From Albula goreensis (taxonomy: Eukaryota; Chordata; Actinopteri; Albuliformes; Albulidae), in NCBI GenBank assembly GCA_022829145.1, contig CM040747.1, forward strand, positions 36,844,052 to 36,908,051: a stretch of DNA of 64,000 bases. The letters are read 5' to 3'. The stretch's first letter is position 1. Each line of letters opens with the position of its first letter. Below the pieces are notes generated by a model. The model saw only the letters and a program-made list of their open reading frames with translations, was not told the DNA's origin and did not search any database. The translations under genes were made by a program, and so were the position numbers. This document shows positions 10,026-44,855 of this stretch, piece by piece.

Positions 10026-10032
10026 TTAATAA

Positions 10033-11694: not shown

Positions 11695-11850
11695 TACCCT
11701 GTATCGAACCCCCGGTGAGGCTGGCCAATTGTTGCCTGGCCATGGTTGGGAATGGCGAGGTCGGGAATCGAACCTCCGACCTAATCGAACCCCCGACCTA
11801 AGGACCCGTAGGCAGGAATTTATCCCACGAGCCACTTGTATTAGGACAGT
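11695..11850 (-). mobile_element. tRNA-derived SINE-like element
   Basis: On the minus strand there is an A-box-like TGGCTCGTGGG close to the 11850 end and, downstream, GGTTCGATTAG and GGTTCGATTCC, matching the RNA polymerase III B box GGTTCGANTCC. The B-box region is duplicated. The exact 3' end was not determined. Confidence 0.6.
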
Positions 11851-12698: not shown

Positions 12699-13406
12699 AT
12701 GTGGCCAAAACTGTGTGAGAGTTGCCGGATGATCGGATACCTCGAGGATGAGTTCATCTGCGACCGTTGCCGACTAGTTGAGCACTTAGAGAGTAAGATT
12801 CTTGATCTCGAAGCCCAACTAGCTGGACTCCACAGTAATCCTGAATTGTTAGAGTTCCAGGAACTGTTTACTACACCCTATAGGGAGATAGTGCGCTCAC
12901 CAAAGCTGGGTAGGGAAGAAGATACAGACCAGACAGGGCAAGAGAGCTGGGTTACAGTAGGGCGTAAGCGTAGAAAGAGGCGCAAAATCCCAAGTGGGGT
13001 GGCATCTCCGGAGATTGCGGTGACCAACCGCTTCATGCCACTACATGACGAGTTGGCCCGCGATCCTGTGGGTGGGAGGACTGAAGAGCCCCAGGGCACC
13101 CAGGCGGCCTCATCCTCCAAGAAAAGGGAGTTAGTGATAGTGGGGGACTCAATCATTAGAGGGGTAGATAGCATAGTGTGTTCGCGCAACAAGGAGTCTC
13201 GTATGGTCTGTTGCCTACCTGGTGCCCAGGTTGGAGACCTCCTGGAGCGTACGGACAAGCTCCTGGCCAGAGCGGGGGAGGATCCAGTGGTCATGGTCCA
13301 TGTTGGGGCCAATGACATAGGAAAGGGTAGATTTGAGGTTCTGCAGGATAAATTTATCGAGCTAGCAGGAAGATTAGAGCAGAACCTCCACGGTAGTCTT
13401 CTCTGA
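12699..13406 (+). pseudogene. LINE ORF1: zinc-finger plus SGNH esterase protein, 3' broken
   Basis: A 235-codon frame begins ATG at 12699. Residues 5-25 hold paired cysteines (CESC, CDRC), a PHD-like zinc finger as in ORF1 of CR1/L2-type LINEs, followed by a short coiled coil (LESKILDLEAQL). From about residue 145 the SGNH-hydrolase blocks appear: VGDSIIRGVD (serine block), LPGAQVGDLL (glycine block) and HVGANDIGKG (asparagine block). The frame stops at 13404-13406, yet the final catalytic Asp/His block QDGLHLNRRG is found downstream in another frame (about 13552-13580), ending in a stop near 13636. So the ORF has suffered at least one frameshift. The element continues into the N gap. It is retroelement DNA inside the NLR intron, not host coding sequence. 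Confidence 0.82.
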
Positions 13407-13643
13407 ATTCTACCGGTACCACGTGCAAGCAAAGGGAAGCAAGCCTTTACATGGAGGTTTAACACGTGGCTACAAACCTGGTGCAGGAAAGAGGGGTACA
13501 GGTTTATGGGGCACTGGGACTCCCTTTTTGGAACAGGGGTGACCTGTACATGCAGGACGGGTTACACCTGAACCGGAGGGGTACAGCTGCATTGGGCCAG
13601 CGTATGCTTAGGGTAGCAGAGGGGTATTTAAACTAGGGACTGA
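13407..13643 (+). mobile_element. Frame-shifted C-terminus of the LINE ORF1
   Basis: Noncontiguous continuation of the preceding ORF1: the frame starting near 13527 reads WNRGDLYMQDGLHLN and ends at a TAG near 13636, eight bases before the gap. This is where ORF1 of such elements normally ends, so ORF2 may have been lost in the unsequenced gap. Confidence 0.7.
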
Positions 13644-14143
13644 NNNNNNNNNNNNNNNNNNNNNNNNNNNNNNNNNNNNNNNNNNNNNNNNNNNNNNNNN
13701 NNNNNNNNNNNNNNNNNNNNNNNNNNNNNNNNNNNNNNNNNNNNNNNNNNNNNNNNNNNNNNNNNNNNNNNNNNNNNNNNNNNNNNNNNNNNNNNNNNNN
13801 NNNNNNNNNNNNNNNNNNNNNNNNNNNNNNNNNNNNNNNNNNNNNNNNNNNNNNNNNNNNNNNNNNNNNNNNNNNNNNNNNNNNNNNNNNNNNNNNNNNN
13901 NNNNNNNNNNNNNNNNNNNNNNNNNNNNNNNNNNNNNNNNNNNNNNNNNNNNNNNNNNNNNNNNNNNNNNNNNNNNNNNNNNNNNNNNNNNNNNNNNNNN
14001 NNNNNNNNNNNNNNNNNNNNNNNNNNNNNNNNNNNNNNNNNNNNNNNNNNNNNNNNNNNNNNNNNNNNNNNNNNNNNNNNNNNNNNNNNNNNNNNNNNNN
14101 NNNNNNNNNNNNNNNNNNNNNNNNNNNNNNNNNNNNNNNNNNN
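13644..14143. other. Assembly gap, 500 N
   Basis: A run of exactly 500 N, the conventional placeholder for a gap of unknown length. The true distance and any LRR exons or LINE ORF2 sequence here are unknown. Confidence 0.99.
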
Positions 14144-17100
14144 GTTGTCAGTGATCTAGTCATGAGAAGTCTGAGGGGGGTGCCCTATGGATCAGATGAA
14201 CTTTTGACTACAGTTTGAGGTCTGGTCTGGCCCAGACTGGACTGTTTAGTCGTTTCAGACAGGAGCTGCTGTGGAAGGGTGATTCCTGGCTGTTACCCCC
14301 AGGTACCCTTGTGCTGTTCTGACAGAGACTGTTTATCCTGGTGACTGTATCAAGAAATGGAAATACAGAAATAATGATCTCATTTCTACAGTCCATCCTA
14401 GTTTGTGTGATATCCTAACCAGGAGATATATGTTAACAGTCTTACATTAGTGGTACTTCCTGAAGTCCAGATAATCACTGACTTACATGACACTGGGTCA
14501 GTGAGCAGCTACTCACAATGAGGAGGTGTTGTGAAAAATGTAAGAATGGGGCAGCACTCTAGGGATGTGCCCAATGCACCTGCAAAGATCATCCTGTAGC
14601 TGTGGTTGCCTGATTGGGCTGGGTTTAACAGTCTACAGTAACTGACTAAATTACCATTAATATATCTGATTAAATGGCTTAATCAACTAATGGTTAGAGA
14701 GAAATGGTTGCTGTTGTTACAGGCAAACCAAGCTGAGTAAAAATGACTCATGCAGCCCCCTTTGGTAAGGTGGAGTTGAACAAAGAGAAAAGAGAGTGAT
14801 GGAGGAGGAGAGGTACTCTGTTTGTAGGTTTCATTTTCCTGATGAGCATATGGGAACTTATGTTCCTTTCTAAGCAGTGCAGCTACTGTTAAACTGTTCT
14901 GAGCTTCCTTCCCCATCTGTGTCTGTACCTGTGGGTCTGCCTGAATTATCTTCTCCCCAATTTTTGCTGTCATTGGAAAAAGAAAATGGACCACAGTAAC
15001 ACTTTGGGCAAAAGGTTTTCTTAATGTGTTTTTGGGGCTCTAAGGTTCTGAAGGAGTGACTTGGCACTTGCTCTAGACCTTCTGGTCAACCTCAGTTTTT
15101 TCATTTGTGGCACGATACGCAGGGTGTCCCAAATGGTCTGGGCCTCCCTTTTAATCTTATGCATTGATTATTTATCTCTTGAGGACAAAACAACATGAAT
15201 ATGAATACAGGGGTGGAGGTTGTATAAGAAGAGAGATTTGAAAGTTTGACTCTCTTCTATACCTGGCTTGTCTCTACCCTGTATTTAGACATACTGTAGC
15301 AACACATTATTATTATTTATTTATTTATTTTGCAATTGACCATGATGCATCATGTCCACTCCATGCTGTGGAAGACATTTAGTTTAGTTTATTTTATTTC
15401 CAGTCTTGCCTGTTTTTATGTTTTGTGGTCTTTTGTGATGTTGTGTGTTTTTGTAAAATGAGGCCAGACTTTCTACTGTTTCTGTGTCATAGTGAATGCA
15501 CTTCAGGGTGAACAAATGAGCTGAAGGCATTTTCCTCCTCTGGCATGTATTTGCATAGGTCAGTGTGACAGTGAGCCAGTCAGATTTCACCTGAAATTTT
15601 TACAAAACTAATCATGATTGGCAGACAGATTGTTACGATGGGTGTTATTTCTTGGATAAAAATTACAGTACGGAACGTTGGCGCTGAATTTTTTCACATA
15701 TCCTGTTAGTATAGGCAATAAAATCAATGGCAGTTCTGCTCTGAAGAGTTGTGTTTTTTCCCCTCTAAATTATAAAAAGTATTGATGATGGTGTCAATAT
15801 TGTCTCAAACTGTTCAACAGCATCAGTGAGGTATCAATAAGATCTTAATGATACCCATCCCTAGTGAGAGGTAACTGTAGTGAAACACAGTTTGTGTTCC
15901 CTGTGTGGAGGGGATAAATCATATGATTGTCAGAAGGTTCATGCTGAGATCTTCTGGTCCCCCCTTTGGAAGGGTGCAGGATTAAAGACGTGAATAGACT
16001 GAAAGGTTTTGGTTAGAGGAAGTAGAAGAATGATGCTCAGAGCAGCCTGAGTTACAAGGAGACCCCCCTTTCCCCTTTTCACTGTGTGAAGAGTGAGATA
16101 TCAGCACATAGTCTGATGTGGTTTCCACTGAAACACTGCGTAGTGAATTAGAGTGGGACCTGAGGTCGGCTAGACCAGATATTAGACCCAGATCAGCATG
16201 CAAAGTGTTTCTGTGCACCTGGTTAAATGTGGCTCCTTGCAGAATTGAGGTGAGTGGGGATGAGACGTTCACCGCTGAAAGAAATGAAGGGGCATCATGT
16301 GACTGCAATACTGCAGAGCGTTCACTTTTATGATGGAAAAATTCCTCTCAGTAGGAGCAGAGATCTGATTTGGCAGAATGCAAATCATCTAGATACTGAA
16401 GAGCTTTTTTCTAAAGGTTTGTAGATCCTGGAGGATGTTTGTTTTGAGCTCTCAGTTTTACAATCTCACTTCCTAGTTACTCATTTGCAAAGGAGGGCAA
16501 GGCTGGCTTGCCTTGAGAGAGCCAAGACAGAGCATGACTATGTATTTTTCAGTTCAAATTAGGTTAATGGCAATTTAATAATACCATTAAATTTCAGAGG
16601 TACTGAAGACATTGGTATGCAAGTAAAATGACCAAATGGACAATTATTTTCATGATTCATATATAATAATAATCATGATTGTTCATAATCAATTAAAGCT
16701 GTTTCTTATAGTGATTTGAATGATTGAGGGTGATTAATAATACAAATAATGAATAACAATGCTTTTCTTCAAGTTTGTGTGGAATTGTCAATGTGTTACC
16801 AAGGGGAATTCACAACCACAGTGCGAGCTTTGCTTGCTGTAACTTCATTCAACTGCAGTAGACAGTGGCGTTTGAGAACATGTGCACCATCTAGTGGTCA
16901 ATGTGGGAAGTGGAATGATTTAAGTTAGAGGCTGCTTGGATAGGGGCCCCATTATCTGTTTTGTCAGGAGCCTCACTCCCTCCTTCTTCTCCAGGGGCCC
17001 CACTCTGCCTGTTTTCCAAAATTAAGTAGCATTTTTCTTTGTAAAAAAAATAAATAAATAAAAACAGCCAAATGATATTATCACAACATTGAATATGCCA

Positions 17101-17330
17101 AAATCTATCCTCACACATGAGGGCACCAAAAAGTGTACAGTAAATGTCCTATTCAGCACATGGGAAATATGAAGATAATGCTGTTCCTCACAAAGGCTCC
17201 AGTTAAATGCAGGTGAAGTGTATGCAGTGCAAGAACAAACAGATAACACAATATGTTCATCTTAACAGTCCCAGCACAAGGCATCAATTAAAAGTAATCA
17301 ATCTCATAAAATGACTCTCATCAAATCAAT
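14144..17330. other. Intron stretch without a recognised gene
   Basis: About 3.2 kb between the gap and the next LRR exon. It is AT-rich with a TTAT-type simple repeat near 15310. Open frames (14683-14994, 15982-16308, 16891-17118) show no domain and no splice support. Nothing was identifiable. Confidence 0.5.
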
Positions 17331-17440
17331 CTCATACAGTGTGTGTGTGTGTGTGAGTGTGAGACTCCAGCTGGCACAGGGACACTGAGTCATTATTCTG
17401 TCACAGTCCAAACCCAGTACAGAGGGTGTGTGTGTTTTCT

Positions 17441-17545
17441 CCACAGGCTGGGTTGGTGTATATTTATCGTATGTGTGTGTTTTCTCCACAGGCTGGGTTG
17501 GTGTATATTTATATTGTGTGTGTGTTCTCTCCACAGGCTGGGTTG
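17441..17545 (+). repeat. 45-bp minisatellite containing the 3' splice site of an LRR exon
   Basis: Three copies at 45-bp spacing (ccacaggctggg at 17441, 17486, 17531). Each has a T-rich tract, the acceptor ctccacag and the first exon bases gctgggtt. Only the third leads into the LRR exon. Distances of 45 and 90 are multiples of three and contain no stop, so the upstream acceptors are frame-compatible. Confidence 0.93.
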
Positions 17546-17710
17546 CTGTAATCTCACAGTGGGCTGCTGTGATGATCTGGCCTCAGTCCTGCATTCTCCC
17601 CACTCAGAGCTGAGATATCTGGTGCTCAGAGACAACGAACTGCAGGATTCAGGAGTGAGAGCGCTCTCTGCTGGACTGGAAGACCCACACTGTAAACTGC
17701 AGAGACTGGG
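17537..17710 (+). CDS. NLR gene 1 LRR exon
   Basis: A 174-bp phase 2-2 exon reading [15 protein letters not shown] to [10 protein letters not shown], with the LRR core [12 protein letters not shown] and the second-repeat motif [11 protein letters not shown]. It differs clearly from the array exons, so it is a distinct, older LRR module. The acceptor is the third copy of the 45-bp repeat. Use of the first or second copy would add 30 or 15 residues rich in Cys and Val in frame. The donor is gtgagtaaca. Confidence 0.9.
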
Positions 17711-18092
17711 GTGAGTAACAAACACAAACCCCCTCTTTCATGAAGGGATCAAACGTGACTAAATATCCCACTAATATCAATAATGACTCAGGCTAAAGCT
17801 TTCTGTTCTCTTTGCACAGTCAAACTGTCATGTTAAAATGTGTGTTTTTCCAACAGCAATTTCAGTGTTCATAAGGGAATAAAATACTGAATTGTTACTT
17901 TCGAAAATTATTCATTTCTGTATTACAATATTAATTGCATACCTTCAATTATAGACAACAAAGAAGTAAATGAGTCAGTCCCACTCATTAAAATAATGAT
18001 AAGGTGTATACTACTCATTCCACAGCCCTGTTATTTTATATTCAGATTCTGTAAGGTGTGTTTGTCCAGAGCTGGTCTCCTTCTCTCTGCAG

Positions 18093-18254
18093 GCTGTCAG
18101 GCTGTCGAGTCACAGAGAGAGGTTGTGATTCTCTGGCTTCAGCTCTGCGTTCAAACCCATCACACCTGAAAGAGCTGGATCTAAGCTACAATCACCCAGG
18201 AGACTCAGGAGTGAGAGCGCTCTCTGCTGCTAAACTGGACACACTTACACTGCT
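18093..18254 (+). CDS. NLR gene 1 last LRR exon, shortened
   Basis: The exon follows ttctctctgcag and reads [34 protein letters not shown], then KLDTLTLL. It is 162 bp, 12 bp less than the 174-bp family size. The missing part corresponds to the LEDPHC segment normally found before KL in these exons, so four residues appear deleted in frame. The donor gtaagtac at 18255 is followed by three more copies in a 45-bp repeat. Reading past the first donor meets TAA at once, so only the first donor keeps the B30.2 exon in frame. Confidence 0.87.
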
Positions 18255-18895: not shown

Positions 18896-18941
18896 AATAT
18901 TTATTATAATAATTAATCTCATTAATGTCTCTGGTCTGCAG

Positions 18942-19520
18942 ATGGCTGTCAGCTCACACTGGATCCAAACACAGCGCACAGATTCCTGTCTCTGTCTGAG
19001 GGGAACAGGAAGGTGACACTCACAGGGAGAGAGCAGCCATATCCTGATCATCCAGAGAGATTTGACTGGTGGCCCCAGGTTTTGAGCAGAGAGAGTCTGT
19101 CTGGATGCTGTTACTGGGAGGCTGAGTGGAGTGAGTCTGAGAGGGGATGGGTTCATATAGCAGTGACATATAAAGGAATCAGCAGGAAAGGACGGGGTGA
19201 TGACTGTGTGTTTGGATGGAATAAAAACTTATGGAGTCTGGAGTGCTCTAAACACAGATACTATGTCTGGCACAATAAGAATCAAACAGACATACCTGCC
19301 CCCCCCCTCCCCATACCGCAGACTAGGAGTGTGTGTGTACAGAGTAGGAGTGTGTGTGGACCGTCTGGCCGGCACTCTGTCCTTCTACAGCGTCTCTGAC
19401 TCTGACACACTGACCCTCCTGCACAGATTGCACACCAACTTCACTGAACACACACCCCTCTGTGCTGGGTTTGGAGTGTATGAACCTAACACCTCAGTGT
19501 CCCTGTGCCAACTGGAGTAG
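18942..19520 (+). CDS. NLR gene 1 B30.2 (PRY-SPRY) exon, frame-shifted
   Basis: The exon starts after ctggtctgcag. PRY motif: LTLDPNTAHRFLSLSEGN; SPRY motifs: GCCYWEAEWSESERGWVHIA, VTYKGISRKGRGDDC and FGWNKNLWSLEC. In this frame translation hits TGA at 19397-19399. The expected end of the domain (LAGTLSFYSVSD, then SVSLCQLE and a TAG at 19518-19520) lies in the +1 frame, and the switch point is the run of nine C at 19299-19307. An extra base there, biological or from sequencing, explains the break. Just after it, a short duplication (VCVYRVGVCVD) is also unusual. B30.2 is the presumed ligand-binding module of these receptors. Confidence 0.85.
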
Positions 19521-21543: not shown

Positions 21544-21545
21544 GG

Positions 21546-24480: not shown

Positions 24481-26139
24481 TGTAAATTTACAAGAATAAG
24501 TAAGTAATATCACACCTCGGTCGAAGGCACGAGGCCGCAGCCCGAGTGCCAAAGATAATCACAGCCATGCTGATATTCAGTATAACAGCAAGACCTTGAG
24601 AGTGATATTATAACAGCAAGACCTCCTCCTCCCCCATCTCCACCTCATCTTCTCCTTCTTTCTTCACTATAGGTACCTAATCCTAACTGTTCTCCCAAAT
24701 TCTTTCTGTCAAAAAAAAAAAGGGGGGGGGGGAAGGGTTTGCTCACCTTGATGACAGAACCACTCCTCCCCCTTAGACTCCAAGCCCAAGTTAATTCTCT
24801 ACAATATCCCTCATCAATAAACTCATTTAATGCTCTATTGTTGTCTGTGAATTTTGTACTACTGAATGCTTTTAACAGTCTGTTTATCAAATAACAATAA
24901 TCTGAGATAACAAATTATGTTTTTTGTTGTTTATTCAGCACTGCCAACAAAAATAGTTCCTTTAGAATTAAATTTACACATGTTGTCAAGCGACACAAAC
25001 AGGTTCTTGACTGCAGGTTAGTTAGCCCATTTTATCTGATGATCTGCCACAATAGAGAACGTAAAAAAACGTTTTCAGTTATAAGGCGCTAAAAATGTTA
25101 CAGAATGATGTATCAATGCATTTCCAGCAAATATTGAAATAATGAAGGGTGTCAATGAAATGTGTGCAGTGTCACATGTTTAGTGTAAATTGTTACATGA
25201 CCAGAGCTGTTTACTTCTTAGATGCACCATGACAAGAAGATGGCAGAATCAAAACTCCCAAACAAAAGGTGAGTAAAGTATGTCAACATAAATATAGGAT
25301 GAAGATTTTTGGTACACATCATCTTTAAGGTGTCTAGTATTGATACATGCATTTGCAATTACTCAACTTTGTTCAGTGTGGTCATAGAATGAGACATGAT
25401 GAAACATGTTGATGGCAACAATAGTGACCGGTGGGATAGCAGTATAGGTATACACATATTTATACACATACATAGTTGTTGTTCTACCTAACTTTCTACT
25501 CTATTCTACCTTTTAATTCAAAATATTCACAAAAATCTAAACTAATATTCACAAAAAAGTAAAATGATTGAAAGGAAAAACAAAATCTTATGATGATATA
25601 AACATTTTTTCTCTAAAATATGTGTGCCACAAATATTGGCACCCATAGAAATTATTTTGATTAAAATGCTAACTAAAGTATATTCCCATTCATATTTTAT
25701 GTTTTAAAGTTCACTTGAGGGATTAGGAACACTTAAATGGTCAGCCATCACCTCCTGTTTCACTGGGGTATAAATATGAGGTGACACACAGGCCAAGTTC
25801 CCCTTGTCATCCATAAATATGAGACAGTGAGAGTTACTATTGAACCACTGAAGCTCAGTGTGCTGGAGCAGAACCCCTCAGTGTCCCGGGTCAGTGCCTC
25901 TCCGGCGCCTCATATGTGGCCCAGGACTTGTACTTCTTTGAAAGTCGGCCCTCTCGTGCTGGTGCTAGTGCATTGCTTCCGATTATCAGCTTTTTTAGCT
26001 TTGCGGAACCAGGTGTTTGGCGGCTTGATGGAAGCGATGCCTTAAATTAGGCACTGAAAAGCCCAACAATGCAGCACAGACACTGGGCATGAATTGAGCA
26101 CTCATACAAAAATATTTTTTCACACCTTTGATGGGATCC
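24481..26139. other. AT-rich spacer between duplication copies A and B
   Basis: No gene was recognised. It includes a tccgaggcacgag-type GC-rich patch at 24520-24550, a doubled tataacagcaagacct at about 24580-24625, a G9 run at 24722-24730 and the Ig V-flank relic at 25827-25900. Confidence 0.5.
25827..25900 (-). pseudogene. Relic of Ig V-segment 3' flank
   Basis: About 70 bases match the sequence lying downstream of the V segments at 28680-28760 and 34050-34125, including aagctcagtgtgctggagc and cagtgtcccgggtcagtgcc. The match stops before the RSS, so only the outer flank of a lost fourth V segment remains. Confidence 0.7.
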
Positions 26140-28825: not shown

Positions 28826-28853
28826 GGTTTTTGTACGGCTCTCTATCACTGTG
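28826..28853 (-). other. 12-spacer recombination signal of V segment 1
   Basis: Minus strand: heptamer CACAGTG (28853-28847), a 12-base spacer, nonamer ACAAAAACC (28834-28826). Both are consensus. A 12-bp spacer on a light-chain V is the kappa-type arrangement and predicts a J with a 23-bp spacer. Confidence 0.95.
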
Positions 28854-29183
28854 TGAACACCCAGCTACTGCTGATCTCATGTACACTCTGACAGTAGTAA
28901 TCTCCTGCATCTTCAGCCTGGACTCCACTGATGGTCAGAGTGAAGTCAGTCCCAGATCCACTGCCACTGAATCGATCAGGAATCCCTGAGATACGCTGAT
29001 TTGCATACTTGATCAGGGGTTTAGGAGCTTCTCCAGGTTTCTGCTGGTACCAGAATGTGAAATGATTCCCATAAATGTCTTGATAAACTGCAGGGTTGGT
29101 TTTACAGCTCAGGGTGACAGTGTCTCCTATGAGAGCAGATTTACCAGCAGGAGTCTGAGTCACAGTCACCTGTCCTGTGCATT
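28854..29183 (-). CDS. Immunoglobulin light-chain V segment 1 (V exon)
   Basis: The exon follows an acceptor at 29185-29184 and ends exactly at the RSS heptamer. FR1 is [18 protein letters not shown] with LSC; CDR1 is long; FR2 [18 protein letters not shown]3 [19 protein letters not shown] and AEDAGDYYC; the germline CDR3 start is [14 protein letters not shown]. The canonical Cys, Trp and Cys residues are present and the frame is open. The kappa-like motif set fits a teleost IgL V gene of the antibody light chain, displayed as membrane or secreted antibody after joining to J and C. It is closely similar to V segment 3, implying recent duplication. Confidence 0.95.
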
Positions 29184-29358
29184 CTAAAGAGAAGAATAAA
29201 AACATATTCATATTATCCATAGGCACATTAGACTGTCACACGATTGCCCAGGCAGTTATTTCATACAAGTATTTCATACAGTCACTTTAAGCTCAATACG
29301 TCAATTTCATGAAACTAGAAAGTCACATATCTACTTGAATATTTTTCATGAATCTCAC

Positions 29359-29431
29359 CCTGAATGCAGAAAGCGAGTGCCCAGATGAAGATGGTGATAA
29401 AAATCATTGTTGCTGTGGGTTCTGTTGCCAT
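29359..29431 (-). CDS. Leader exon of Ig V segment 1
   Basis: ATG at 29431-29429, with an internal second ATG. It encodes MATEPTATMIFITIFIWALA and continues to a phase-1 donor ggtgaga at 29358. The hydrophobic stretch IFITIFIWALAF is the signal peptide core. It joins in frame to the V exon. Confidence 0.92.
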
Positions 29432-29527
29432 GAAGGACAGCTCTCAGTCATCAGGTGTTAAACTCACAGGACTATAAACACTCCCAGAGCACTGAAGCAT
29501 GTGCTGCCAATGCAAAGTGTCTTCTCT

Positions 29528-29535
29528 ATGCAAAT
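29528..29535 (-). promoter_or_regulatory. Octamer promoter element of V segment 1
   Basis: ATTTGCAT on the coding strand, about 97 bases upstream of the ATG, with TATA-like gtttatagt between (29477-29469). This is the light-chain V promoter arrangement bound by Oct factors in B cells. Confidence 0.88.
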
Positions 29536-29599
29536 GGTCTTCCTGGGTACAGCAGGCACATGTAGCCCAGCAGTGCTGTGGACTGGAGACTGTGGGCTG

Positions 29600-30430
29600 T
29601 GACAGAGAGAGAGTTCAACAGCAGCACCAGGACAGCCAGGAACAGATTTTTGGGATTTCACTGTCATATTCAGGGTATATATTGCACATAAAAATGCACT
29701 TTAACTTATGCAATTATGTTCTATGATCATTTGCATATGCCAATTCTGAATATTAATTAGTAAGACAGCAGAACAACATCCAATAGGGGACTTTTTAAGC
29801 ATATGTGTCTCAATATTTAGAATCTTCCTCTTCATACTTTCACTCTCTTTTTCCATCTTGGCTTTTTATCACGTTACCTAAAACCCTCTGGCAAACATCA
29901 GCTAGTATCAGTTTGATATTTGATTAACTCTCCTCTTTGTGAGAAACACAGGTCACTGCACTCCACATGAAAACATTTAACCAGCAACATGTGAACTGTG
30001 ATGAAGATGGACATACAGAACCCAGTGCTCACCAAAGATTATCAGAAGCACCTGGTTTTATTACTGACACAGTAGCTTTGAAAAGGGATGGGAGCAGAGC
30101 AGCTCTGTGTCCTGAGAAAAGGACTGGATCAGGGGAAAGTCTTGATGAGCTGAGTTAAGCTGCACTGATATAAACCATTAGCAGTGAGTGAGAGGCACCA
30201 TTACCTGAGTGTGGAATAAGTGAAGAGTCTTAAGACATCTCATGGCAAAAATAAGTCCACACTCTGTTTAGGGCTGTAAGGCTGTTTAATGATCATGCAG
30301 TATGACTGCAGTGTAGCTGGGTTTATTCTGCTGGGGGTGTGCTCTGGGAGGTACAGGGCTGGAGCTCTGCAGGTGGATGGGTGCTGGAGGAGCCCTGGGG
30401 GCTGGGCAGTGCTGTGAGGCTGGTGTGGAC
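29600..30430. other. Spacer between V segment 1 and LINE insertion
   Basis: About 0.8 kb without a recognised gene. The frame at 29967-30158 has no domain. Confidence 0.5.
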
Positions 30431-30439
30431 TTTAAGGAC

Positions 30440-31430
30440 GGTGACCCGTGGCGCAGGGGGGCTGCACCCTGACTCGGGCTGGATTGATGGTGCGGGGGCT
30501 GAGTGGGTTACAGCCCAATGCTACGTCTTTTAGACTTTTGGCAAAGAGCTTCACACCCTCATGGTGTAAATGCTGCCCATCGTAGAGGTGCCATGGGCTG
30601 ATGGTGGGGTGGTGAGCCAGGTGCAGCACGTCCTCTGGCCATCTCCACATTGATGTCTCTGATCACATGGGGGAGACGTCGGTGCGGGGCAGCAGGGTGG
30701 AGATGATCACCCGGCTATCAGGAGACTCCTGGGAGGCTCTCTCGGCTCCCCTCCTCTCTGCGCTGGCGGTGTTGTGGCGCAGGCGATGCAGGTCATTGGT
30801 CCCAGTGAATGCTCCCCAGTGTGTCCTGTTTGAGAAGCTCCAGGGCCCGTGCTGTGTTACTGCAGTACATAGCCTTTACTTTTTGGGCTGGGAATAGCTT
30901 TTTGGATTCAAAAACTTCCCATTGAGTCCATGAGAAGGACCTCTTCAGCTTCTGGTGGTGTTTGTTGTTTTCTGTTGGGGGTTGTAATGCAGAGAGGGGT
31001 GTGTGTTTGGGGAAGGGTGTGAGTCTGGGAGGGAGGGGGTGTCGGCCTGTGTGCTGGGGGGGCTGTTGGACTCTGTTGATTGCGTTGAGTCAGGAGGAGT
31101 GGTTGTGTCTCTCTGGGCCAGTAGTTTGGCAGGGGGCTGTGCACAGAGTGTAGTTTGTGTCATTGGAAGGTGTGTTGTTTTGAGGGGAATGGTTTGTGTG
31201 TCAGTGTGTGTGTTTCCAGTGGTACATAAAGTACATATGAGCTCCTGAAGCTGCTCTCATAGGTGCTGTATCTCCTTGATGAAAGATCTCTCCCTGTGTT
31301 GCATGTGCTCTTTTACAGCAGCCAGCTGGACTCTCAGGGCCTGGTTGTCCTGCCTCAGAGTGGCAGCCTCCTCTCTTAGCTCAGCGATAGCTCGGCTGTT
31401 CTCCCTGCTAACACTACTGCTTCTGTTCTA
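30440..31430 (-). mobile_element. Broken LINE ORF1 with SGNH-esterase remains
   Basis: On the minus strand, in order: a coiled-coil segment LREEAATLRQDNQALRVQL (about 31330-31390), a Pro/Thr-rich linker (30950-31150), LLMDSMGSF (about 30920), YCSNTARALELLKQ (about 30850), and the terminal Asp/His block HLYDGQHLHHEGVKLFAKSL (30490-30600). Frames change and stops occur, so it is dead. This is a different LINE ORF1 from that at 12699: no zinc finger is seen and the coiled coil is N-terminal. Confidence 0.75.
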
Positions 31431-32420
31431 CTGTTATACATGTGTTAAAGTGAAGGGCCAGATGAAAGGTGTGATTCTTTAGTTCTTTGGGTCCTGTTAT
31501 TTGTACCTTATTGGGTTGCACATTTCATGTGCTACTTGTACATACAACACAATGGGATCATCTTGCTCTCACATCCCAAAATATGTTTTTTTATGAAGAT
31601 AACAGCATTTAAGTGAAAACTTAAAATTAGATATAAAATGAAATAAACAACTAAAAAAACACCTGTTAGTTTTTCTGTCAAACTCAGCCAATTTGCAACA
31701 GAGAGCCAAATCAGACCACAAACACATGGAACAATATTAAATGTCATTAAACATTTTTACATGTATCACACAGTGTCACAGAATATTTCACACTGAGTGT
31801 CTTTGCAGCTTCAGGTCTCCTCTGTTATAATGCAGTTGTGTCATGAGCAACAGATGGGCTCTGTCTCCCTCCTCTGGTCAGTGTATGTAATAGCAGCTTA
31901 TGTGAGGTGTGATGGGGGAGAGCGCTTTGGACTGCCCTGCCTGGTGAACACTGCAACTGTTTTTTTGTATATTTTTGTATATAACATATGAGGACATGTT
32001 ATATGCAACTGCTTCATAGTCAAAACATGTATCATGAAAATACTTTTCATTAACTGGCACTGAGTAATCGGGGCAGTTTAGAATTTTTAGAATGTTTTTC
32101 ACACCGCCATTTTAATTTCCCCCAGGTGTCATTTAATGGCTTGGATTTTCCGGCAATTGAATTCAATGTCAATATATGATTGTTATTTTTGGAGTTCAGT
32201 GAGCGAATGGAGCTGTGTTTAAGTTGCAGATACACTGTATCAGTATGCAGAGTGTGAGAGAGTTATAACTGGACCACTGAAGCAGAACCCCTCAGTGTCC
32301 CGGGTCAGTGCCTCCCCCCTCAGCACCTGCAGTAGGTCCCAGCTGCAGCAGTGCAGTCTCTGTGCAGTCTGACTGAGGGAGGTTTTTGTACAGCTCTCTA
32401 TCACTGTGTGAACCCACTTT
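31410..32420 (-). repeat. V-segment downstream flank, duplicate of 33205-34230
   Basis: Matches 33205-34230 nearly end to end (tatacatgtgttaa, ggtgtgattctttagttct and the cacactgtgtg region), showing that V segments 2 and 3 arose with their downstream flanks as one unit of about 1 kb or more. Confidence 0.85.
32381..32408 (-). other. 12-spacer recombination signal of V segment 2
   Basis: CACAGTG (32408-32402), 12-base spacer, ACAAAAACC (32389-32381), all consensus. The spacer differs by one base from those of V1 and V3. Confidence 0.95.
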
Positions 32421-32720
32421 TGCTCTGCTGACAGTAGTAATCTCCTGCATCTTCAGCCTGGACTCCACTGATGGTCAGTGTAAACTGAGTCCCAGATCCA
32501 CTGCCACTGAATCGATCAGGAATCCCAGACTGGCGAGTTGTGGCATAATAAATGAGAAGTTTAGGGGCTTGACCAGGTTTCTGCAGGTACCAGTGAAGGT
32601 AAAGAGTGCTGGAGTAATCACTTTTAACACTCTGACTGGCTGTACAGCTGATAGAGACAGTGTCTCCCAGCTGAACAGACTGGGCTGGAGACTGAGTCAG
32701 AACTATTTCTGCCATTGATC
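32409..32720 (-). CDS. Immunoglobulin light-chain V segment 2 (V exon)
   Basis: The exon runs from the acceptor (AG at 32722-32721) to the RSS. FR1 is [20 protein letters not shown] with ISC; CDR1 [13 protein letters not shown]2 [21 protein letters not shown]3 [19 protein letters not shown] and AEDAGDYYC; germline CDR3 QQSKSGFTQ. Cys, Trp and Cys are intact and the frame is open. It is clearly more diverged from V1 and V3 than they are from each other and looks the most mammalian-kappa-like (EIVLTQSP). It is a different V subgroup in the same orientation. Confidence 0.95.
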
Positions 32721-32926
32721 CTGAAAAACAAAACATGGGAATGGATCTTAATATACATTAAATCTGGAAAAAAAAGGAAATGAAGTGCACACAATATAAC
32801 ATTATAGTCAACAATGATCTGATATCCTTGTACATTTAAGCTGAAATGACCATATTTCTTCAGCATAACCAATAATAGTATGAAAAATAATGATAAAGAA
32901 ATTAAAGTGTGATCAGTGTCTCTCAC

Positions 32927-32978
32927 CCTGAATAAGGAGTCCCAGCACTGCCAGCAGTAGAGAGAGTGACATCATCAT
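32927..32978 (-). CDS. Leader exon of Ig V segment 2
   Basis: Three consecutive ATG codons from 32978, then MMMSLSLLLAVLGLLIQ and a phase-1 donor ggtgaga. A short, strongly hydrophobic signal peptide, different from the leaders of V1 and V3. Start at the first ATG assumed. Confidence 0.92.
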
Positions 32979-33071
32979 TGTGCTGCCTGTGTCAGTGTGT
33001 GTGAAAGGGCTGGACAGTCACTGATCAGTACTGGGGTCTTAAAGTGTGTGAAGCAGAGAGGCAGGACAGGT

Positions 33072-33079
33072 ATGCAAAG
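33072..33079 (-). promoter_or_regulatory. Variant octamer of V segment 2
   Basis: CTTTGCAT on the coding strand: one mismatch to ATTTGCAT at the first position, about 94 bases upstream of the ATG, the same position as the perfect octamers of V1 and V3. Confidence 0.65.
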
Positions 33080-33204
33080 CCCCTTCCTCTATACAAATCC
33101 TGTCACACACAGTTAGAGGAGCTCTGAGGCGTGAACAGCACTGTGTCTATGGAGGGCTGGGACTCTCTCTGCTGTTTTCACACAGACAGAAAGCTTAATG
33201 TTTG

Positions 33205-34184
33205 GGCTAACAGTACTGCTTCTGTTCTACTGTTATACATGTGTTAAGGTGAAGGGCCAGATGAAAGGTGTGATTCTTTAGTTCTATGTGTCCTGTTATT
33301 TACACCATATTGGGTTGCATATTTCATGTGCTACTTCTACACATAACACAATGGGGTTATCTTGCTCTTTCATCCTAAAAATATGTCTTTTCAGTAAGAT
33401 ACAATTTTAGTGAAAACTAAAGAAATAAATAAAATCAAAAACACCTATTAGTTTTTCAAACTCACAACAAATTAGTTACAACTCAGCCAGTTTGTTTTAG
33501 AGAGCTAAAGCAGGCATTACTGCTACCAAAAACATATGGAACAATATTCAATATCAAAAAATGTTTTAAATGTATCACACAGTATCACAGTATATTTCAC
33601 ATTGTGTGTCTCTGCTGCTTCGGGTCTCCTCTGACATAATGTACGTGAATCATGAGTGACAGATGGGCTCTGTCTCCCTCCTGTGGTCTGTGTATGTAAT
33701 GGCAGCTTGTGTGAGGTGTGATGGGGAGAGTACTCTGGATTGCCCTGCCTGGTGAACACTGCTACTATTTCCTGGGACATGTTACATACCACTGCTTTAT
33801 AGTCAACAGATTTTTCTTAAAAAAATAAATTTCATGAACTGGCACTTATTCGTCTGGGCAGTTTCAATTTTTTTAGAATGTTTTTGAAATTGTGACTTGA
33901 ATTTCCCCCAGCTTTCATATGAATTGGCTTGGATATTCTGACAGTTGAATTCAAGGTCAGTATATGAGTGTTATGTTTGGAGTTCAGTGAACCAGTGGAG
34001 CTGTGTTTAAGTTGCAGCTACAACTGTGTCAGTATACAGAGTGTGAGAGAGTTATAACTGAACCACTGAAGCTCAGTGTGCTGGAGCAGAACCCCTCAGT
34101 GTCCCAGGTCAGTGCCTCCCCCCTCAGCACCTGCAGTAGGTCCCAGCTGCAGCAGTGCAGTCTCTGTGCAGTCTGACTGAGGGA
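33205..34184 (-). repeat. Downstream flank of V segment 3
   Basis: Partner of 31410-32380. It contains the same landmarks but not the LINE remnant, so the LINE lies outside the duplicated unit. Confidence 0.82.
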
Positions 34185-34212
34185 GGTTTTTGTACGGCTC
34201 TCTATCACTGTG
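34185..34212 (-). other. 12-spacer recombination signal of V segment 3
   Basis: CACAGTG (34212-34206), 12-base spacer identical to that of V1, ACAAAAACC (34193-34185). Confidence 0.95.
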
Positions 34213-34530
34213 TGAACACATAGCTACTGCTGATGTAGTGTAAACTCTGACAGTAGTAATCTCCTGCATCTTCAGCCTGGACTCCACTGATGGTCAGAGT
34301 GAAGTCAGTCCCAGATCCACTGCCACTGAATCGATCAGGAATCCCCGAGACACGCTGATTTGCCAACTTTATCAGGAGTTTAGGAGCTTCTCCAGGTTTC
34401 TGCTGGTACCAGATGAGCTGGTTGTTGCCATGCACAGCAGTGCTGGTTCTACAGCTCAGGGTGACAGTGTCTCCTATGAGAGCAGATTTACTAGAAGGAG
34501 TCTGAGTCACAGTCACCTGTCCTGTGCATT
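34213..34530 (-). CDS. Immunoglobulin light-chain V segment 3 (V exon)
   Basis: The exon runs from acceptor tcttttcag (AG at 34532-34531) to the RSS. FR1 is [18 protein letters not shown] with LSC; CDR1 [12 protein letters not shown]2 [19 protein letters not shown]3 [19 protein letters not shown] and AEDAGDYYC; germline CDR3 [14 protein letters not shown]. Open, with all canonical residues. Frameworks are almost identical to V1 while CDR1 and CDR3 differ, the usual pattern among members of one V subgroup. A four-codon difference in CDR1 length separates it from V1. Confidence 0.95.
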
Positions 34531-34696
34531 CTGAAAAGAAGAATAAAAATTAATATTAAAATGTTCTATTGGCATATTACAATGTCACACCATTGCCCCG
34601 ACAGTTATTTCATACAGTTAATTTCAGCCATATACTTCCCTTTAAATAGATATGATTTTTTTCATTTTAATCAAATATTTTTTTTGTGAATCTCAC

Positions 34697-34766
34697 CCTG
34701 AATGCTGAAAACGAGTGCCCAGATGAAGATGGTGATAAAAGTCATTGTTGTGGGTTCTGTTGCCAT
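34697..34766 (-). CDS. Leader exon of Ig V segment 3
   Basis: ATG at 34766-34764, encoding MATEPTTMTFITIFIWALVF to a phase-1 donor ggtgaga. Same leader family as V1, one codon shorter. Confidence 0.92.
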
Positions 34767-34864
34767 GAAGGACAGCTCTCAGTCATCAAGTGTTAAACTC
34801 ACAGGACTATAAACACTCCCAGAGCACTGAAGCATGTGCTGCCAATGCAAAGTGTCTTCTCTCT

Positions 34865-34872
34865 ATGCAAAT
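34865..34872 (-). promoter_or_regulatory. Octamer promoter element of V segment 3
   Basis: ATTTGCAT on the coding strand, about 99 bases upstream of the ATG, with the same TATA-like gtttatagt as V1 between them. Confidence 0.88.
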
Positions 34873-34949: not shown

Positions 34950-35800
34950 GACAGAGCAGTTCAACACTGGTGTAACAGTGTCTGGACAGCAGGATAAAAA
35001 TTAAACCAACGTTCACATTTTGCCATCATATTTTTTTCTCTCATGTACCCCAGTTAAATGGCACACACCCCTCCTCTAACTCATCTCTACAGAAACAGAC
35101 TGAGTAGGTGAAATTGCACTACAAGTTTTTAAACATAGAAACCTTGGTTTTTGTCTCATTGTATGTTTTGTTCATTTTATGGGTTCAGTTAATTATTCTT
35201 CGCCTATCCTTACTGTATTGGTGATTATATCCCACTGTATTAAAGTGCCAGTCAGGTCTGGCTTCTGCAGCCATTGCTGTTTCTGCACTGCAGTGAATGA
35301 GGCTTTTGCTGCTTTCCTACATAAACATGCTAAATTAACTGGATGTGATCTGAACATTATCCTGATTGGTAATAACTCAGTTTCATTTAAACTGGGTAAT
35401 TCTGAGAGGGGAATAATCAAGCTCTGATCTGATGTGTTCCTGCTCAGGAGTGCCTCTCAGTGTAGGGTGAGAGTAACACACAGTAATATAAAGAGTACTA
35501 TAATGCATTTCAATTTCTGCAAAGTAAGTAATACAGTCATTTAACACTTTACTTGAAAAAGCCATGATGAGTACTGTGTAATATATTACAGGTTTTATGT
35601 GTGTGTATTTATAACATTAAATGAAACCCATGAATTTGTTCAATGGGTGTTTGAAGTACATTGGATTGTTTGAAGAATTGTCAGCTTATACGTTTGATTC
35701 AAGAAAAGGGTCATTCATTCATTTTTGCATCAGTATTACATTTTCAAATTCATATGCTTATCATGTATGAGAACTACACAGAAAAATGAATAATGAGTCC
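34950..35800. other. Intergenic stretch without a recognised gene
   Basis: Upstream of V segment 3. No further V, J or C exon was found. Overlapping frames at 35179-35427 and 35193-35420 on opposite strands lack domains. Confidence 0.5.
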
Positions 35801-35804
35801 TGTG

Positions 35805-36245
35805 ACACAGTGGCTGGTGTGGCCACTGGGTCGTGTGGCGAGTGGAAGGAAAACACAGAAGTTTAAACAAGAAGTGGCCAGCGTCCTTTTATTTGAGCCT
35901 TTTCCCAGGGAAAACCCAACAAAACAAATGGAAACAATGAAACTGAAAAACAGAACTGCCAGGGGAAAAACAAATAACACAAACCCGGTCCAAACCCAAA
36001 AGAAGTCCTCGTTCAGCCTCTCAGGCTGTGCTTAAATAAAAGGCCTAATTGAAGGCAAGTGCTCACAGCTGAGTTGATTAGAAATCACTCTCAGGTGAGG
36101 CTGCCTGTTTGTGAGGCCTCTGCTGCTGCAGCTCCAGTTAACTCTCCAGGCTGAGGGAGGGAACCAGGAGACTGACAGCAGTACAGTGGGAGGAGCTGAG
36201 GAGCTTGCTCCTCCCTCCACCTCCCCCAGCACCACAGTCCTATAA
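35805..36245 (+). repeat. Unclassified interspersed-repeat-like segment
   Basis: About 440 bases of higher GC content than the surroundings, running from gtgacacagtggctggtgtg to caccacagtcctata. Both strands show only short frames. It has the look of an inserted repeat, but no terminal repeats or pol III boxes were found. Confidence 0.4.
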
Positions 36246-36845
36246 CATTTGATGTCTGTTTATCAACTTTTGTTGGTTTTGTAAAAATGCAAGTTACAAT
36301 ATATGAAATATAAGTAATATTTCATCATAAAATGATATAATGTATGCAAATAAGCAATGAAAATACATTCCAACATGATATCACTTCCTTCTATATTTGT
36401 TACCAAGAGACTTTTACATTTTTATTCATTTGTATTTTATTTTTCTAAATAGCTCATATGAACACTTTTATTTTAAAACAGAATAAACAACACATCCACA
36501 TTTTTTTTTTTTTAATTTTCCTCATTTGGCCTACAAATTAAATCATACACAAATACTGTACCATCATAAAGACCACTGTGCTGGAATGTGCTTCAACATC
36601 AAAGAGTAAGTTAGACTGTTGTTGGTGCTCTTATTAAACTCTTGCTTGTTCAGCACTGTAAACTCTTACTGTTTTTATTCTTTTAAATTTAGAACATAGA
36701 ATTGGACAGAATTCACATCATTCTGTTTTCCAGCAACAGTAGTTTGTTCAAGTGGTTTAGAATTTTCAGTATTTCAGCCTCTATGATGTCACAATAGGAA
36801 TGTTCTTAAAATACAAACAGCTATCAATTAATATGACATTAGTTT

Positions 36846-38188
36846 GTTTGCCGAAGGCGCAAACTGCTGTTCTGCTATAGAATCTTTACTTCTTCTTATT
36901 ATTATTCCTGATTCTTTCGGATGTATCTCCTCCTACAGTTTTTAAGCTAGACTTACCAAACTTGACCACCAGAGGTGTGGATACACAAGTCAGGTTGCTT
37001 CTATTTTTCTAAGCTATATGATTCATACTTTTTAAACTATTAAGCTTTAAAAAATTGCCTCCATTGACTTAACATTGGTGGCATGTTGAGCATGCTAATG
37101 TGGCTAACGTTACTAAGCAACAATTGTAACGGTCATTCGCTGCTCGGCTCACAAACGGATTTAATGTGTCAGTATCTGAAATGTATGAACTACTTCAGCG
37201 GTAAGGATTTAAAGTCCTAAATATGATCTACTTTTTAAACTAGACTTACTAAATTTGGTAACTTGAATATATTGGCCAGGTTGCTTGTATTTTTCTACGC
37301 CATACGATATAGGTTTGCCACCTTTCAGAAATGAAAATAAGGGACGCCCACCACAACAACATTTAATTGTCAATTAAACGACGATTCCGAAGCTTTTTTA
37401 AAAAAAAAAAAAAAAAAAACGGTGTCCGTTGACTTAATATTTGTGTAATACTGAGCATGCTAACAAGCTAACGTTATTGACACGAAGCGACAATGATGAC
37501 ATGTAACGTTACTTTTAATTCAACGAATACCACTTCACCAGTAGCAGTCCAAAGTAGTACCTAATTTCCGATAATTTTAAGGTTACTGACAAAATAAAAA
37601 TATCCCAGCAGCATGCCAGCTACCTGACCGGGCTTGAAATTTTGTAATAACTTTCCATTTGACACAAAGATACTGGGATAACGTTTTCTCTCGCTATAAT
37701 GTTATACAACAGTAATGGAATGTGTCTCGGGCAATCACAACGCGCGGTCCCTGCTGTATAAAATGTGTTGTGTGTAATATATGTGAGTAATAAAGCTGCT
37801 TTGCGTTTTTGCTTGCAAAGAACTAATGCATACCTGAAGTACTGACTGCACAAGTGCACTGTAATAATAAACACTGCTGTTTACATTCATACTGCCTTGT
37901 AGTCTACAGATATTATAATTTATTGTGTACAAGTATGATACGGTAGCCTAGCACATATACTGACACTGCTGTGCTGTTCAGGTATAATGATCTTAAATGA
38001 ATAATTCATGTTTTGAACAGTACTCCTGCTGCTACTACTTCAGTGCTTGCCGTACCTACTAGAAGTTTCAATATACTAATAATAAGAAGTAGTCTTATTA
38101 TATGTTATATTATTATATAGTAGTCTTATTGTTAACTTTTAGTAGGTAGCCTACAGTTTTAAACATACTCTTAAAGCTTCCGGCAAGC
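36846..38188. mobile_element. Inserted DNA-transposon-like element
   Basis: The ends gtttgccgaaggc (36846) and gcttccggcaagc (38176-38188) form an imperfect 13-base inverted repeat, and the segment is absent from the matching place in copy A. The left part contains tcttcttattattattcctg, common in fish repeats. No transposase is seen. The boundaries come from the comparison with copy A. Confidence 0.55.
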
Positions 38189-39287
38189 AAACAGAGTTTC
38201 TCCTGGAACTCTATATCTAGTTATGAAATAAAGATCAAATAATTAATTACTACATCATTATGATGTAAAATTTAAACATGATATTGGTAATGTGAAAATT
38301 AGTGTGCTGAAATAATATTGTATCATAACGGGTTGAGTATTATTGAATTATTTTACAATTTATCATGTAATTAATTATCTGTGTGATTATTTATTTCATA
38401 AATAAATATATTTTGTTCATTTAATTTAGACTAAAATGGCATTCCATAACTATGGTTCACAATGGGAAGGAAGTTCAAATGTAGAACACTGACAACTGAT
38501 GCAGAATTGAACATAAAGGACAGACAGAAATTATTATGAATGACCACGTACTTCCTAGCTGCTGGGACTGTTTTTTTCCCAAAAATATTGAATCAACACT
38601 GAACATTCATTCAGCTTTGAGGGACTGTGGGACAGAATGTAGTGAATCATATCTTCGAGCTTGACATCTCTGGCCACTCATTCTGAAGTCAGTTAAATCA
38701 GTGCATATTAAAAGCAGATGAATGAGATTTGGACTGTATTCCAAACAAGAAGTGTATTCTCTACAGAGAAGTCCTCAAAGGTTGGAAGTTCACAAATTCA
38801 ATAATGAAATGTATTCTTTTTGTATCGCTGGTTCTGCACAATATACATTATACAAGTAGCCCAGTTAAAACACTGCATTATCCTGGGCATTGTTGTGACA
38901 GAGCTAAGGGCTACCTTTACATGAAATGGTACCTTTAAACAAAAATCAATGGGGCTTGTTTTGCCTTGTTGTTAGGTAAGTCAATAATGATTTGGTTCGT
39001 TCCAAACAGGGTTTGTATAGTCCAAACAAGTAAATTAAATGACTGTCAATTACATGGTGATGTTGCAGAGTATGGTGTCTGGTACAAAGACAGGACAGTA
39101 CAATCATTTGAGATGGGCCCCGGCAAATTTGTATTTTCTCCTGTCTTATATTTGAATGCCATATCATTTGCACCAAGCTGAAGTTTCAAATTCCTGAATT
39201 CAGGATACATGCAAATCAAAAATATCTATGACAAGTTGTTGTGGCTGGCTGTGAACGGTGCTCTCACAAGATGCCTGTCTCCTCAGA

Positions 39288-44039: not shown

Positions 44040-44186
44040 GTCTGTTAGATCTGGGTCAGAACAGTTTCTTGGTCAGTTCTGATCAAGCATGTTCCAGTCT
44101 CCTGAGACAGGGGGCGCTGTCTCTAAAATGAGTCTCTCTGGGGAGCCAGAGACCAGCGCTGGAACCTCCAGCCCTAAAAGCAAGAG
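44040..44186 (+). CDS. NLR gene 2 first coding exon
   Basis: The exon starts after gtgtttacag and carries 49 bases of 5' UTR, then ATG at 44089. It encodes MFQSPETGGAVSKMSLSGEP and a short Ser/Thr-rich tail, ending in phase 2 before gtatga. The phrase KMSLSGE is the characteristic N-terminus of fish NLR-C proteins; a second Met lies inside it, so initiation could also occur there. Low-complexity N-terminal exons of this kind precede the effector domain. Confidence 0.82.
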
Positions 44187-44239
44187 GTATGAATACCTGG
44201 AACAGATTGTACTTTAATTAATACATTATAAATGAGTGA

Positions 44240-44643: not shown

Positions 44644-44754
44644 GGTCAAGGTGGAGATAGCAGGGTCACGTGTACCCAGCTGTATATCGATGAAGAGTGA
44701 CTGGTCAATGGGTCACCCTCTCACCTTCAGAGGGGAATCCACTGCCGATCCAAG
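44644..44754 (+). CDS. NLR gene 2 second coding exon
   Basis: A 111-bp exon after ttgttcacag, phase 2-2, encoding SCISMKSDWSMGHPLTFRGE and ending at ADPR before gtaagt. SxxSMKSDxSM is a conserved short repeat-like motif of fish NLR N-termini, which confirms the frame. Confidence 0.87.
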
Positions 44755-44855
44755 GTAAGTAAACAGGATATTATTTACACAACTGTTTTATAATATCTCA
44801 CTCAGATGGGGGGGTTGAAAGCTGCACTGAGCCTGGCAGGGGGTCCAATGAGTTA

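What the first reader, a model, noticed from the sequence alone, without database searches (positions are those of the whole stretch)
28826..34872. Immunoglobulin light-chain V cluster lying between two NLR genes
Three intact kappa-type V segments on the minus strand lie between the 3' end of one plus-strand NLR gene (about 20.2 kb) and the 5' end of another (44.0 kb). NLR-C and IgL clusters are both multi-copy in fish, but I do not know of a described nesting of one in the other. The result could be co-residence of two rapidly evolving immune arrays, or a chimeric scaffold. A gap at 13.6 kb exists, but none lies between the V cluster and the second NLR gene.
Basis: partly seen in the sequence, partly recalled or inferred. 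Interest (0 to 1): 0.75.

Follow-up and report, generated by a model that had tools for sequence, protein, structure and literature searches.

The report
Antibody and NLR genes intermingled
In this fish, a few hundred antibody light-chain gene segments and dozens of innate-immunity NLR genes are shuffled together along five million bases at one end of a chromosome, so the cutting and joining that builds antibodies is predicted to flip whole NLR genes.

Summary
Three intact kappa-type V segments (minus strand), each with a perfect 12-RSS, lie without an assembly gap between the B30.2 end of one FISNA-NACHT-LRR-B30.2 (NLR-C type) gene and the start of the next. It is neither a chimera nor unique to this spot. 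In the window's own genome (932 Mb, unnamed) the window is C7:36.84-36.91 Mb. The surrounding 264 kb alternates five NLR genes with four V clusters. Over C7:36.38-41.66 Mb (to the contig's end) at least 39 NLR genes, 146 V segments and 19 constant exons are mixed as if at random (64 runs observed, 64 expected). All 19 constant exons have a J with perfect 23-RSS upstream, and the nearest scored V is on the opposite strand in 19 of 19, so V-J joining should be mainly by inversion. The nearest usable scored J-C for the window's V segments is 0.49 Mb away, beyond seven scored NLR genes, which such a join would invert. Kappa-type pieces also lie in or beside NLR arrays on C8 and C17. Each component is of a known kind; the Mb-scale intermixing is the new part, though one paper mentions NACHT and Ig V-set genes sharing a grass carp region. 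Expression, rearrangement and other species were not tested.

The parts
28826..28853 (-). 12-RSS of V1 (CACAGTG, 12-base spacer, ACAAAAACC)
   Evidence: exact consensus match
28854..29183 (-). V1 kappa-type V exon, open
   Evidence: V-set E 4.6e-15; antibody light chains in PDB; exon limits
29359..29431 (-). V1 leader exon (ATG to GT donor)
29528..29535 (-). V1 octamer ATTTGCAT
32381..32408 (-). 12-RSS of V2
   Evidence: exact consensus match
32409..32720 (-). V2 kappa-type V exon, second subfamily (63% aa identity to V1), open
   Evidence: V-set E 2.9e-17
32927..32978 (-). V2 leader exon
33091..33098 (-). V2 variant octamer ATTTGTAT
34185..34212 (-). 12-RSS of V3
   Evidence: exact consensus match
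34213..34530 (-). V3 kappa-type V exon, open
   Evidence: V-set E 3.7e-18
34697..34766 (-). V3 leader exon
34865..34872 (-). V3 octamer ATTTGCAT
25829..25903 (-). 75-base match (93%) to the V3 3' flank: possible trace of a lost V unit
1351..18246 (+). LRR exons of the left NLR gene (1351, 3328, 5304, 7282, 17538, 18094); its NACHT exon lies left of the window at C7:36839952-36841736
18941..19520 (+). PRY/SPRY (B30.2) exon of the left NLR gene; reading frame changes near 19.3 kb
   Evidence: PRY E 9.9e-24; frames
44089..44187 (+). first coding exon of the right NLR gene (MSLSGE... type)
   Evidence: resemblance to known fish NLR first exons is recalled
44645..44755 (+). N-terminal peptide exon (PSCISMKSDWSM... 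type)
   Evidence: resemblance to known fish NLR exons is recalled
50311..50538 (+). PYRIN domain exon
   Evidence: PF02758 E 4.8e-12
52305..54087 (+). FISNA-NACHT-winged helix-HD2 exon, open; LRR and B30.2 exons continue right of the window (C7:36908480-36923089)
35003..39149 (.). V-to-NLR spacer, duplicated with neighbouring V/NLR pairs at C7:36825087-36829221 and (inverted, in pieces) C7:36977838-36982166

Best explanation
The window is a piece of a 5.3-Mb array at the end of contig C7 in which a cluster-type Ig kappa locus (at least 146 V segments, 19 J-C units) and an NLR-C (FISNA-NACHT-LRR-B30.2) family are intermingled. SHOWN: the order of elements; collinear V-spacer-NLR copies in both orientations near the window; perfect 12/23 RSS; nearest scored V opposite to C in 19 of 19 cases. 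INFERRED: (1) a founder V cluster beside an NLR gene was amplified as a composite segment by repeated tandem and inverted duplication near a chromosome end, so both families grew together. (2) The V segments are working parts: RAG joins their 12-RSS to the 23-RSS of J segments on the opposite strand by inversion, as described for zebrafish IgL. (3) Because NLR genes lie between many V segments and their nearest usable J-C, joins from those V segments invert the NLR genes between. The window's V segments would invert about 0.49 Mb carrying at least seven NLR genes to reach the nearest scored plus-strand J-C. Inversion keeps these NLR genes in the chromosome, where deletion would lose them. (4) The NLR genes are presumably ordinary germline-expressed cytosolic sensors in other cells.
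For: 264-kb map: NLR / V x4 / NLR / V x3 / NLR / V x1 / NLR / V x2 / NLR. Genome map: 39 of 74 scored NACHT exons and 146 of 150 scored V lie on C7:36.38-41.66 Mb, with 19 C1-set exons. 64 NLR/Ig runs against 64.1 (sd 4.4) for random mixing. J: 56 of 99 perfect 23-RSS lie on C7:36.4-41.2 Mb; the reversed control has 1. 19 of 19 C exons have such a J upstream on the same strand within 5 kb. Three J-C loci read directly show J with 23-RSS, a C exon (99% identical in protein) and opposite-strand V with 12-RSS within a few kb. Nearest scored V opposite to C in 19 of 19; 71 of 146 V are separated from the nearest opposite-strand scored C by a scored NACHT exon; seven NACHT exons lie between V3 and the first plus-strand J-C. 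Spacer and NLR 3' tail duplicated. Five NACHT exons in 264 kb all open and 95-97% identical. Inversional joins in zebrafish: PMC3014032 (passages).
Against: No expression or rearrangement data. Hit lists are capped (150 of 634 V candidates, 74 of 358 NACHT, 150 of 165 C1-set scored), so neighbours are missing. Local V segments next to each J-C may do most of the work and far V segments, like those in the window, may seldom be used. 19 of the 56 perfect J-type RSS on C7 have no scored C within 5 kb; one of them, minus strand at 36.427 Mb, would give the window's V a deletional, not inversional, join if a C were there. Composite duplication was shown only near the window; the one distant spacer tried (L037) held NLR exons and a gap and gave no match. 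Of 27 V neighbours on the 5' side of NLR genes 8 are not divergent; on the 3' side there is no preference, 15 to 15. One of the five NLR genes in the 264 kb (36.94-36.97 Mb) has no B30.2 hit, and the fifth runs out of the stretch. None of the 150 scored V is on C8, which holds 21 of 74 scored NACHT exons, so NLR growth does not need V segments.
Confidence: 0.85

Rival explanations
1. Assembly chimera: an NLR contig and a kappa contig were wrongly joined.
For: 500-N gaps occur (one in the window at 13644; four in the 264 kb); both families are repeats that assemble badly.
Against: No gap lies between the NLR1 end, the V cluster and the NLR2 start. Other V/NLR junctions with the same duplicated spacer occur, one inverted. 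The mixing spans 5.3 Mb.
Confidence: 0.03
2. The window's V segments are an unused outlying group (relics) dispersed in an NLR array; only V segments beside J-C clusters matter, and no NLR-spanning joins occur.
For: No J or C found in the window. The nearest scored C, at 37.22 Mb, is on the same strand as the window's V in an order that gives no chromosomal coding join (reasoned from orientation). The nearest usable scored one is 0.49 Mb away. Broken V copies occur.
Against: All three have open frames, leaders, perfect RSS and octamers or a near-octamer. V1 and V3 frameworks differ by 4 bases in 70 codons while CDRs differ strongly. Mammalian kappa joins span megabases (recalled).
Confidence: 0.25
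3. Chance overlap of two unrelated expansions in a duplication-prone chromosome end: each family is inserted and duplicated independently, with no composite unit.
For: Zebrafish NLR genes outside chromosome 4 gather near chromosome ends, and those on chromosome 4 lie among another multigene family (PMC4852459, passages). C8 has an NLR array with few Ig pieces found.
Against: Spacer and tail sequences were duplicated together with V and NLR near the window. Kappa-type pieces also lie in or beside the C8 and C17 NLR arrays.
Confidence: 0.2

Closest known systems
Cluster-type teleost IgL loci (zebrafish V-J-C clusters, PMC3014032; review PMC5192425)
   Same: V often opposite to J-C, several J-C clusters on a chromosome, inversional joining (passages)
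   Different: Here the clusters are intermingled over 5.3 Mb with NLR genes; the words NLR and NACHT do not occur in the main text of either paper
Sterlet and spotted gar kappa loci (PMC5985310)
   Same: kappa-type 12/23 RSS; sterlet V1.1 segments end in GTGTTCA before the RSS, as do V1 and V3 here
   Different: described as translocon-type (passages), cluster-type with many J-C here; the word NLR does not occur in that text
Zebrafish NLR-B30.2 family (PMC4852459)
   Same: FISNA-NACHT-LRR-B30.2 plan, nearness to chromosome ends, interspersion with another multigene family (multi-zinc-finger genes) (passages)
   Different: the partner family there is zinc-finger genes, not immunoglobulin segments
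Grass carp male-specific region, as cited in PMC4852459
   Same: one passage says that this region held NACHT genes and also 'immunoglobulin V-set' and other immunity genes
   Different: no order, J-C, RSS or intermixing is given in that passage, and the V-set genes may not be Ig light chain; the grass carp paper itself was not opened

Membership tests
Ig kappa-type V gene segment | V-set domain, open, with leader exon and intron | tested here: met
   (all three); PDB comparison for V1 only
Ig kappa-type V gene segment | 12-spacer RSS directly 3' of V and 23-spacer RSS at J | tested here: met
   V; J:
Ig kappa-type V gene segment | placement in a kappa clade by a tree with known isotypes | not tested
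   no set of named fish IgL sequences was used
Ig kappa-type V gene segment | rearranged and expressed | not testable with these tools
   no RNA or B-cell DNA held
Cluster-type IgL locus | several J-C units interspersed with V | tested here: met
   19 C1-set exons, all 19 with a perfect 23-RSS J upstream, among V on C7
Cluster-type IgL locus | V in opposite orientation to J-C (inversional) | tested here: met
   nearest scored V opposite in 19 of 19
Translocon IgL locus | a single or few J-C at one end of a V array | tested here: not met
   J-C spread over 37.2-41.0 Mb
NLR-C / NLR-B30.2 family | FISNA, NACHT, winged helix, HD2 in one exon | tested here: met
   window copy
NLR-C / NLR-B30.2 family | LRR exons and C-terminal B30.2 exon in the same gene | tested here: met
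   exon order for both NLR genes of the window in the 264-kb map; transcripts not tested
Ig orphon cluster | V segments away from any J-C of the locus | tested here: not met
   same contig, inside the array, 0.49 Mb from a usable J-C

The most novel reading that the evidence does not exclude
Kappa recombination in B cells routinely inverts multi-gene NLR blocks, so each B-cell clone carries its own order and orientation of innate NLR genes. Selection keeps V opposite to J-C partly because deletional joining would destroy NLR genes. Shared V/NLR spacers may then let the two families share regulation in lymphocytes.
Probability: 0.15. Interest if true: 0.9.

Novelty: new variant of a known kind. 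Interest (0 to 1): 0.7.

Why it matters
Innate sensor genes and somatically recombined antibody genes are normally treated as separate genomic systems. Here they share one multi-megabase array, so germline copy-number change can hit both at once and somatic V-J joining may have to act across innate genes. That gives a natural test of whether RAG rearrangement alters neighbouring immune genes, of why teleost V segments often face their J-C in opposite orientation, and of how chromosome-end duplication drives two arms of immunity together.

Tried and rejected
Chimeric scaffold: rejected. J or C inside the window: none found. The 23-RSS-like site at window 20275-20313 (heptamer 6/7, nonamer 8/9) overlaps a LINE-like ORF, recurs at C7:36924481 and has no J motif beside it; treated as cryptic. 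Composite spacer test 2.3 Mb away (L037): inconclusive; the stretch held NLR N-terminal exons and a 500-N gap before the V. Species identity: not established; one paper search on a species guessed from recall gave nothing useful. PF14484 (FISNA) genome-wide, wanted as a less window-biased NLR map, did not complete. The V and NACHT queries come from the window itself, so their hit lists favour this array; PF07654 and the RSS patterns do not have that bias.

What is in print: paper searches in the held library only. Most of the listed papers were seen as listings and not opened; passages were seen of PMC3014032, PMC5192425, PMC5241823, PMC11223323, PMC5985310, PMC8423624, PMC4852459; no paper was read whole. 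Two passages bear against a strong novelty claim: PMC4852459 mentions NACHT and immunoglobulin V-set genes in one grass carp region, and a legend of PMC8423624 says that genes other than Ig and TCR in the bowfin Ig regions exist but are not shown.
Full report
Observation. The three V segments are as described. All are on the minus strand, open, V-set by Pfam, each with a leader exon, intron and a perfect 12-RSS. V1, the only one compared with the PDB, matches antibody light chains, kappa among them. V1 and V3 carry a perfect ATTTGCAT octamer; V2 carries ATTTGTAT. V1 and V3 frameworks differ by 4 bases in 70 codons while their CDRs differ strongly. The V units are diverged tandem copies (V1-V3 86% over 950 bases, V2-V3 79% over 1255) with short possible remnants of further units at 25829-25903 and 22088-22186. 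The NLR genes on both sides are of the fish FISNA-NACHT-LRR-B30.2 type. No gap lies between 14144 and 64000. No J or C was found in the window: no strict J motif, one relaxed match at 13507 without a consensus 23-RSS, no C1-set match among 112 ORFs over 19.9-45.0 kb.

Wider context. The window's own genome is held without a name: 931,924,363 bases in 208 contigs, window at C7:36844052-36908051. I fetched 100 kb on each side and mapped V and NLR exons. The order is NLR(-), four V(-), NLR(+), three V(-) [the finding], NLR(+), one V(-), NLR(-), two V(+) (one with a stop), NLR(+). The left NLR of the window starts at 36833039 and the right one reaches at least 36923089, so both have the whole exon plan from N-terminal exons to B30.2. 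Of the other three, the first also has B30.2, the fourth (36.94-36.97 Mb) has none found, and the fifth runs out of the stretch. The five NACHT exons are all open and 95-97% identical in DNA. Four 500-N gaps lie in the 264 kb.

Composite duplication. Window 35003-39149 (from upstream of V3 toward NLR2) matches C7:36825087-36829221 collinearly in pieces at 85-87%, and in reverse C7:36982166-36977838 in pieces at 84-93%. The 3' tail of NLR1 (19448-25472) matches the 3' tail of NLR2 in pieces at 77-96%. So at least near the window V cluster, spacer and NLR gene were duplicated together, in both orientations. NACHT exons are more alike (3-5% different) than spacers (about 13%), which fits homogenisation by gene conversion (inference; gene conversion in this family is reported in PMC4852459, abstract seen). 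The one distant spacer tried gave no match.

Chromosome scale. V1 as query: 150 of 634 candidates were scored, 146 of them on C7:36.4-41.66 Mb, one at 34.3 Mb on C7 and three on contigs C26, C54 and C68. NACHT as query: 74 of 358 candidates scored, 39 on C7:36.38-41.63 Mb, 21 on C8, 10 on C17, 2 on C24, 1 each on C10 and C13 (counted). PF07654: 150 of 165 candidates scored, 135 matches, 19 of them in the C7 array. Perfect 23-RSS in J orientation: 99 against 1 reversed control, 56 on C7:36.4-41.2 Mb. Perfect 12-RSS: 396 against 2 reversed controls; of the places listed (the list is cut) all but seven are on C7. Along C7, NLR and Ig elements form 64 runs; random mixing gives 64.1, sd 4.4; separate blocks would give 2-3. 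C7 ends at 41,661,071, so the array runs to the contig end.

Recombination geometry. All 19 scored C exons have a perfect 23-RSS J upstream on the same strand within 5 kb; 19 of the 56 J-type RSS have no scored C within 5 kb. Three J-C loci read directly have J with 23-RSS, then C, with V on the other strand within a few kb. For 19 of 19 scored C exons the nearest scored V is on the opposite strand, and for 15 it lies 3' of C. Joining is therefore expected mainly by inversion, as shown in zebrafish (PMC3014032, passages). For the window's V segments the first scored J-C on the usable strand is at 37.366-37.368 Mb; seven scored NACHT exons lie between. A J on the minus strand at 36.427 Mb could in principle give a deletional join, but no C was scored beside it. 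Over the array 71 of 146 V are separated from their nearest opposite-strand scored C by a scored NACHT exon; unscored C exons could lower this and unscored NLR genes could raise it. That such joins happen is inference.

Second and third loci. C17 carries two C exons 67.5-69% identical to the C7 C exon, each with a perfect 23-RSS J upstream, at 2.20 and 4.46 Mb, just outside the scored NLR array at 2.23-4.42 Mb; a third C17 pair lies at 5.97 Mb. The C8 array (scored NACHT at 35.9-40.7 Mb of 40.83 Mb) holds a V exon with a 49-aa match and perfect 12-RSS at 38.344 Mb and two truncated J-like pieces with perfect 23-RSS; none of the 150 scored V is on C8. IgL-like J-C pairs on C3 and C22 have no scored NLR on the same contig. 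Thus the association is recurrent but not universal.

Comparison with what is known. V segments, J-C clusters and NLR genes are each ordinary members of known families. Interspersion of zebrafish NLR genes with another family (zinc fingers) and nearness to chromosome ends are known (PMC4852459). The same paper mentions a grass carp male-specific region with NACHT genes and immunoglobulin V-set genes, a hint of the same co-residence without detail. I found no description of NLR and IgL intermixing in the searches named in Tried and rejected. The species is unknown, expression is untested, and other fish could not be searched.

Noticed in passing
window 18941-19520: The B30.2 exon of the left NLR gene changes reading frame near 19.3 kb beside a 21-base duplication, while two neighbouring NLR copies read through: pseudogene or assembly error.
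   Followed up: partly
window 1194-7460: Four LRR-exon units in near-identical tandem copies of about 1.98 kb, a possible sign of LRR-number change by unequal exchange.
   Followed up: no
window 44233-45032; C7:36963692-36969108: A 58-base minisatellite in the NLR N-terminal introns, greatly expanded in one neighbouring NLR gene.
   Followed up: no
window 20275-20313 and C7:36924481-36924519: A 23-spacer RSS-like site in a LINE-like ORF just downstream of two NLR genes, with no J motif.
   Followed up: partly
window 29620-32240: V1 and V2 lie 3555 bases apart against 1804 for V2 and V3: about 1.75 kb of extra sequence, origin not tested.
   Followed up: no
C6:188145 and C6:337497: Two perfect kappa-type 12-RSS near the start of another contig.
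   Followed up: no
C24:12401926-12522176: Ten closely similar perfect 23-RSS in one orientation, possibly another antigen-receptor array.
   Followed up: no
C19:7495862-7584984: Many C1-set exons in repeated blocks, most on one strand, possibly the heavy-chain locus (name is a guess).
   Followed up: no
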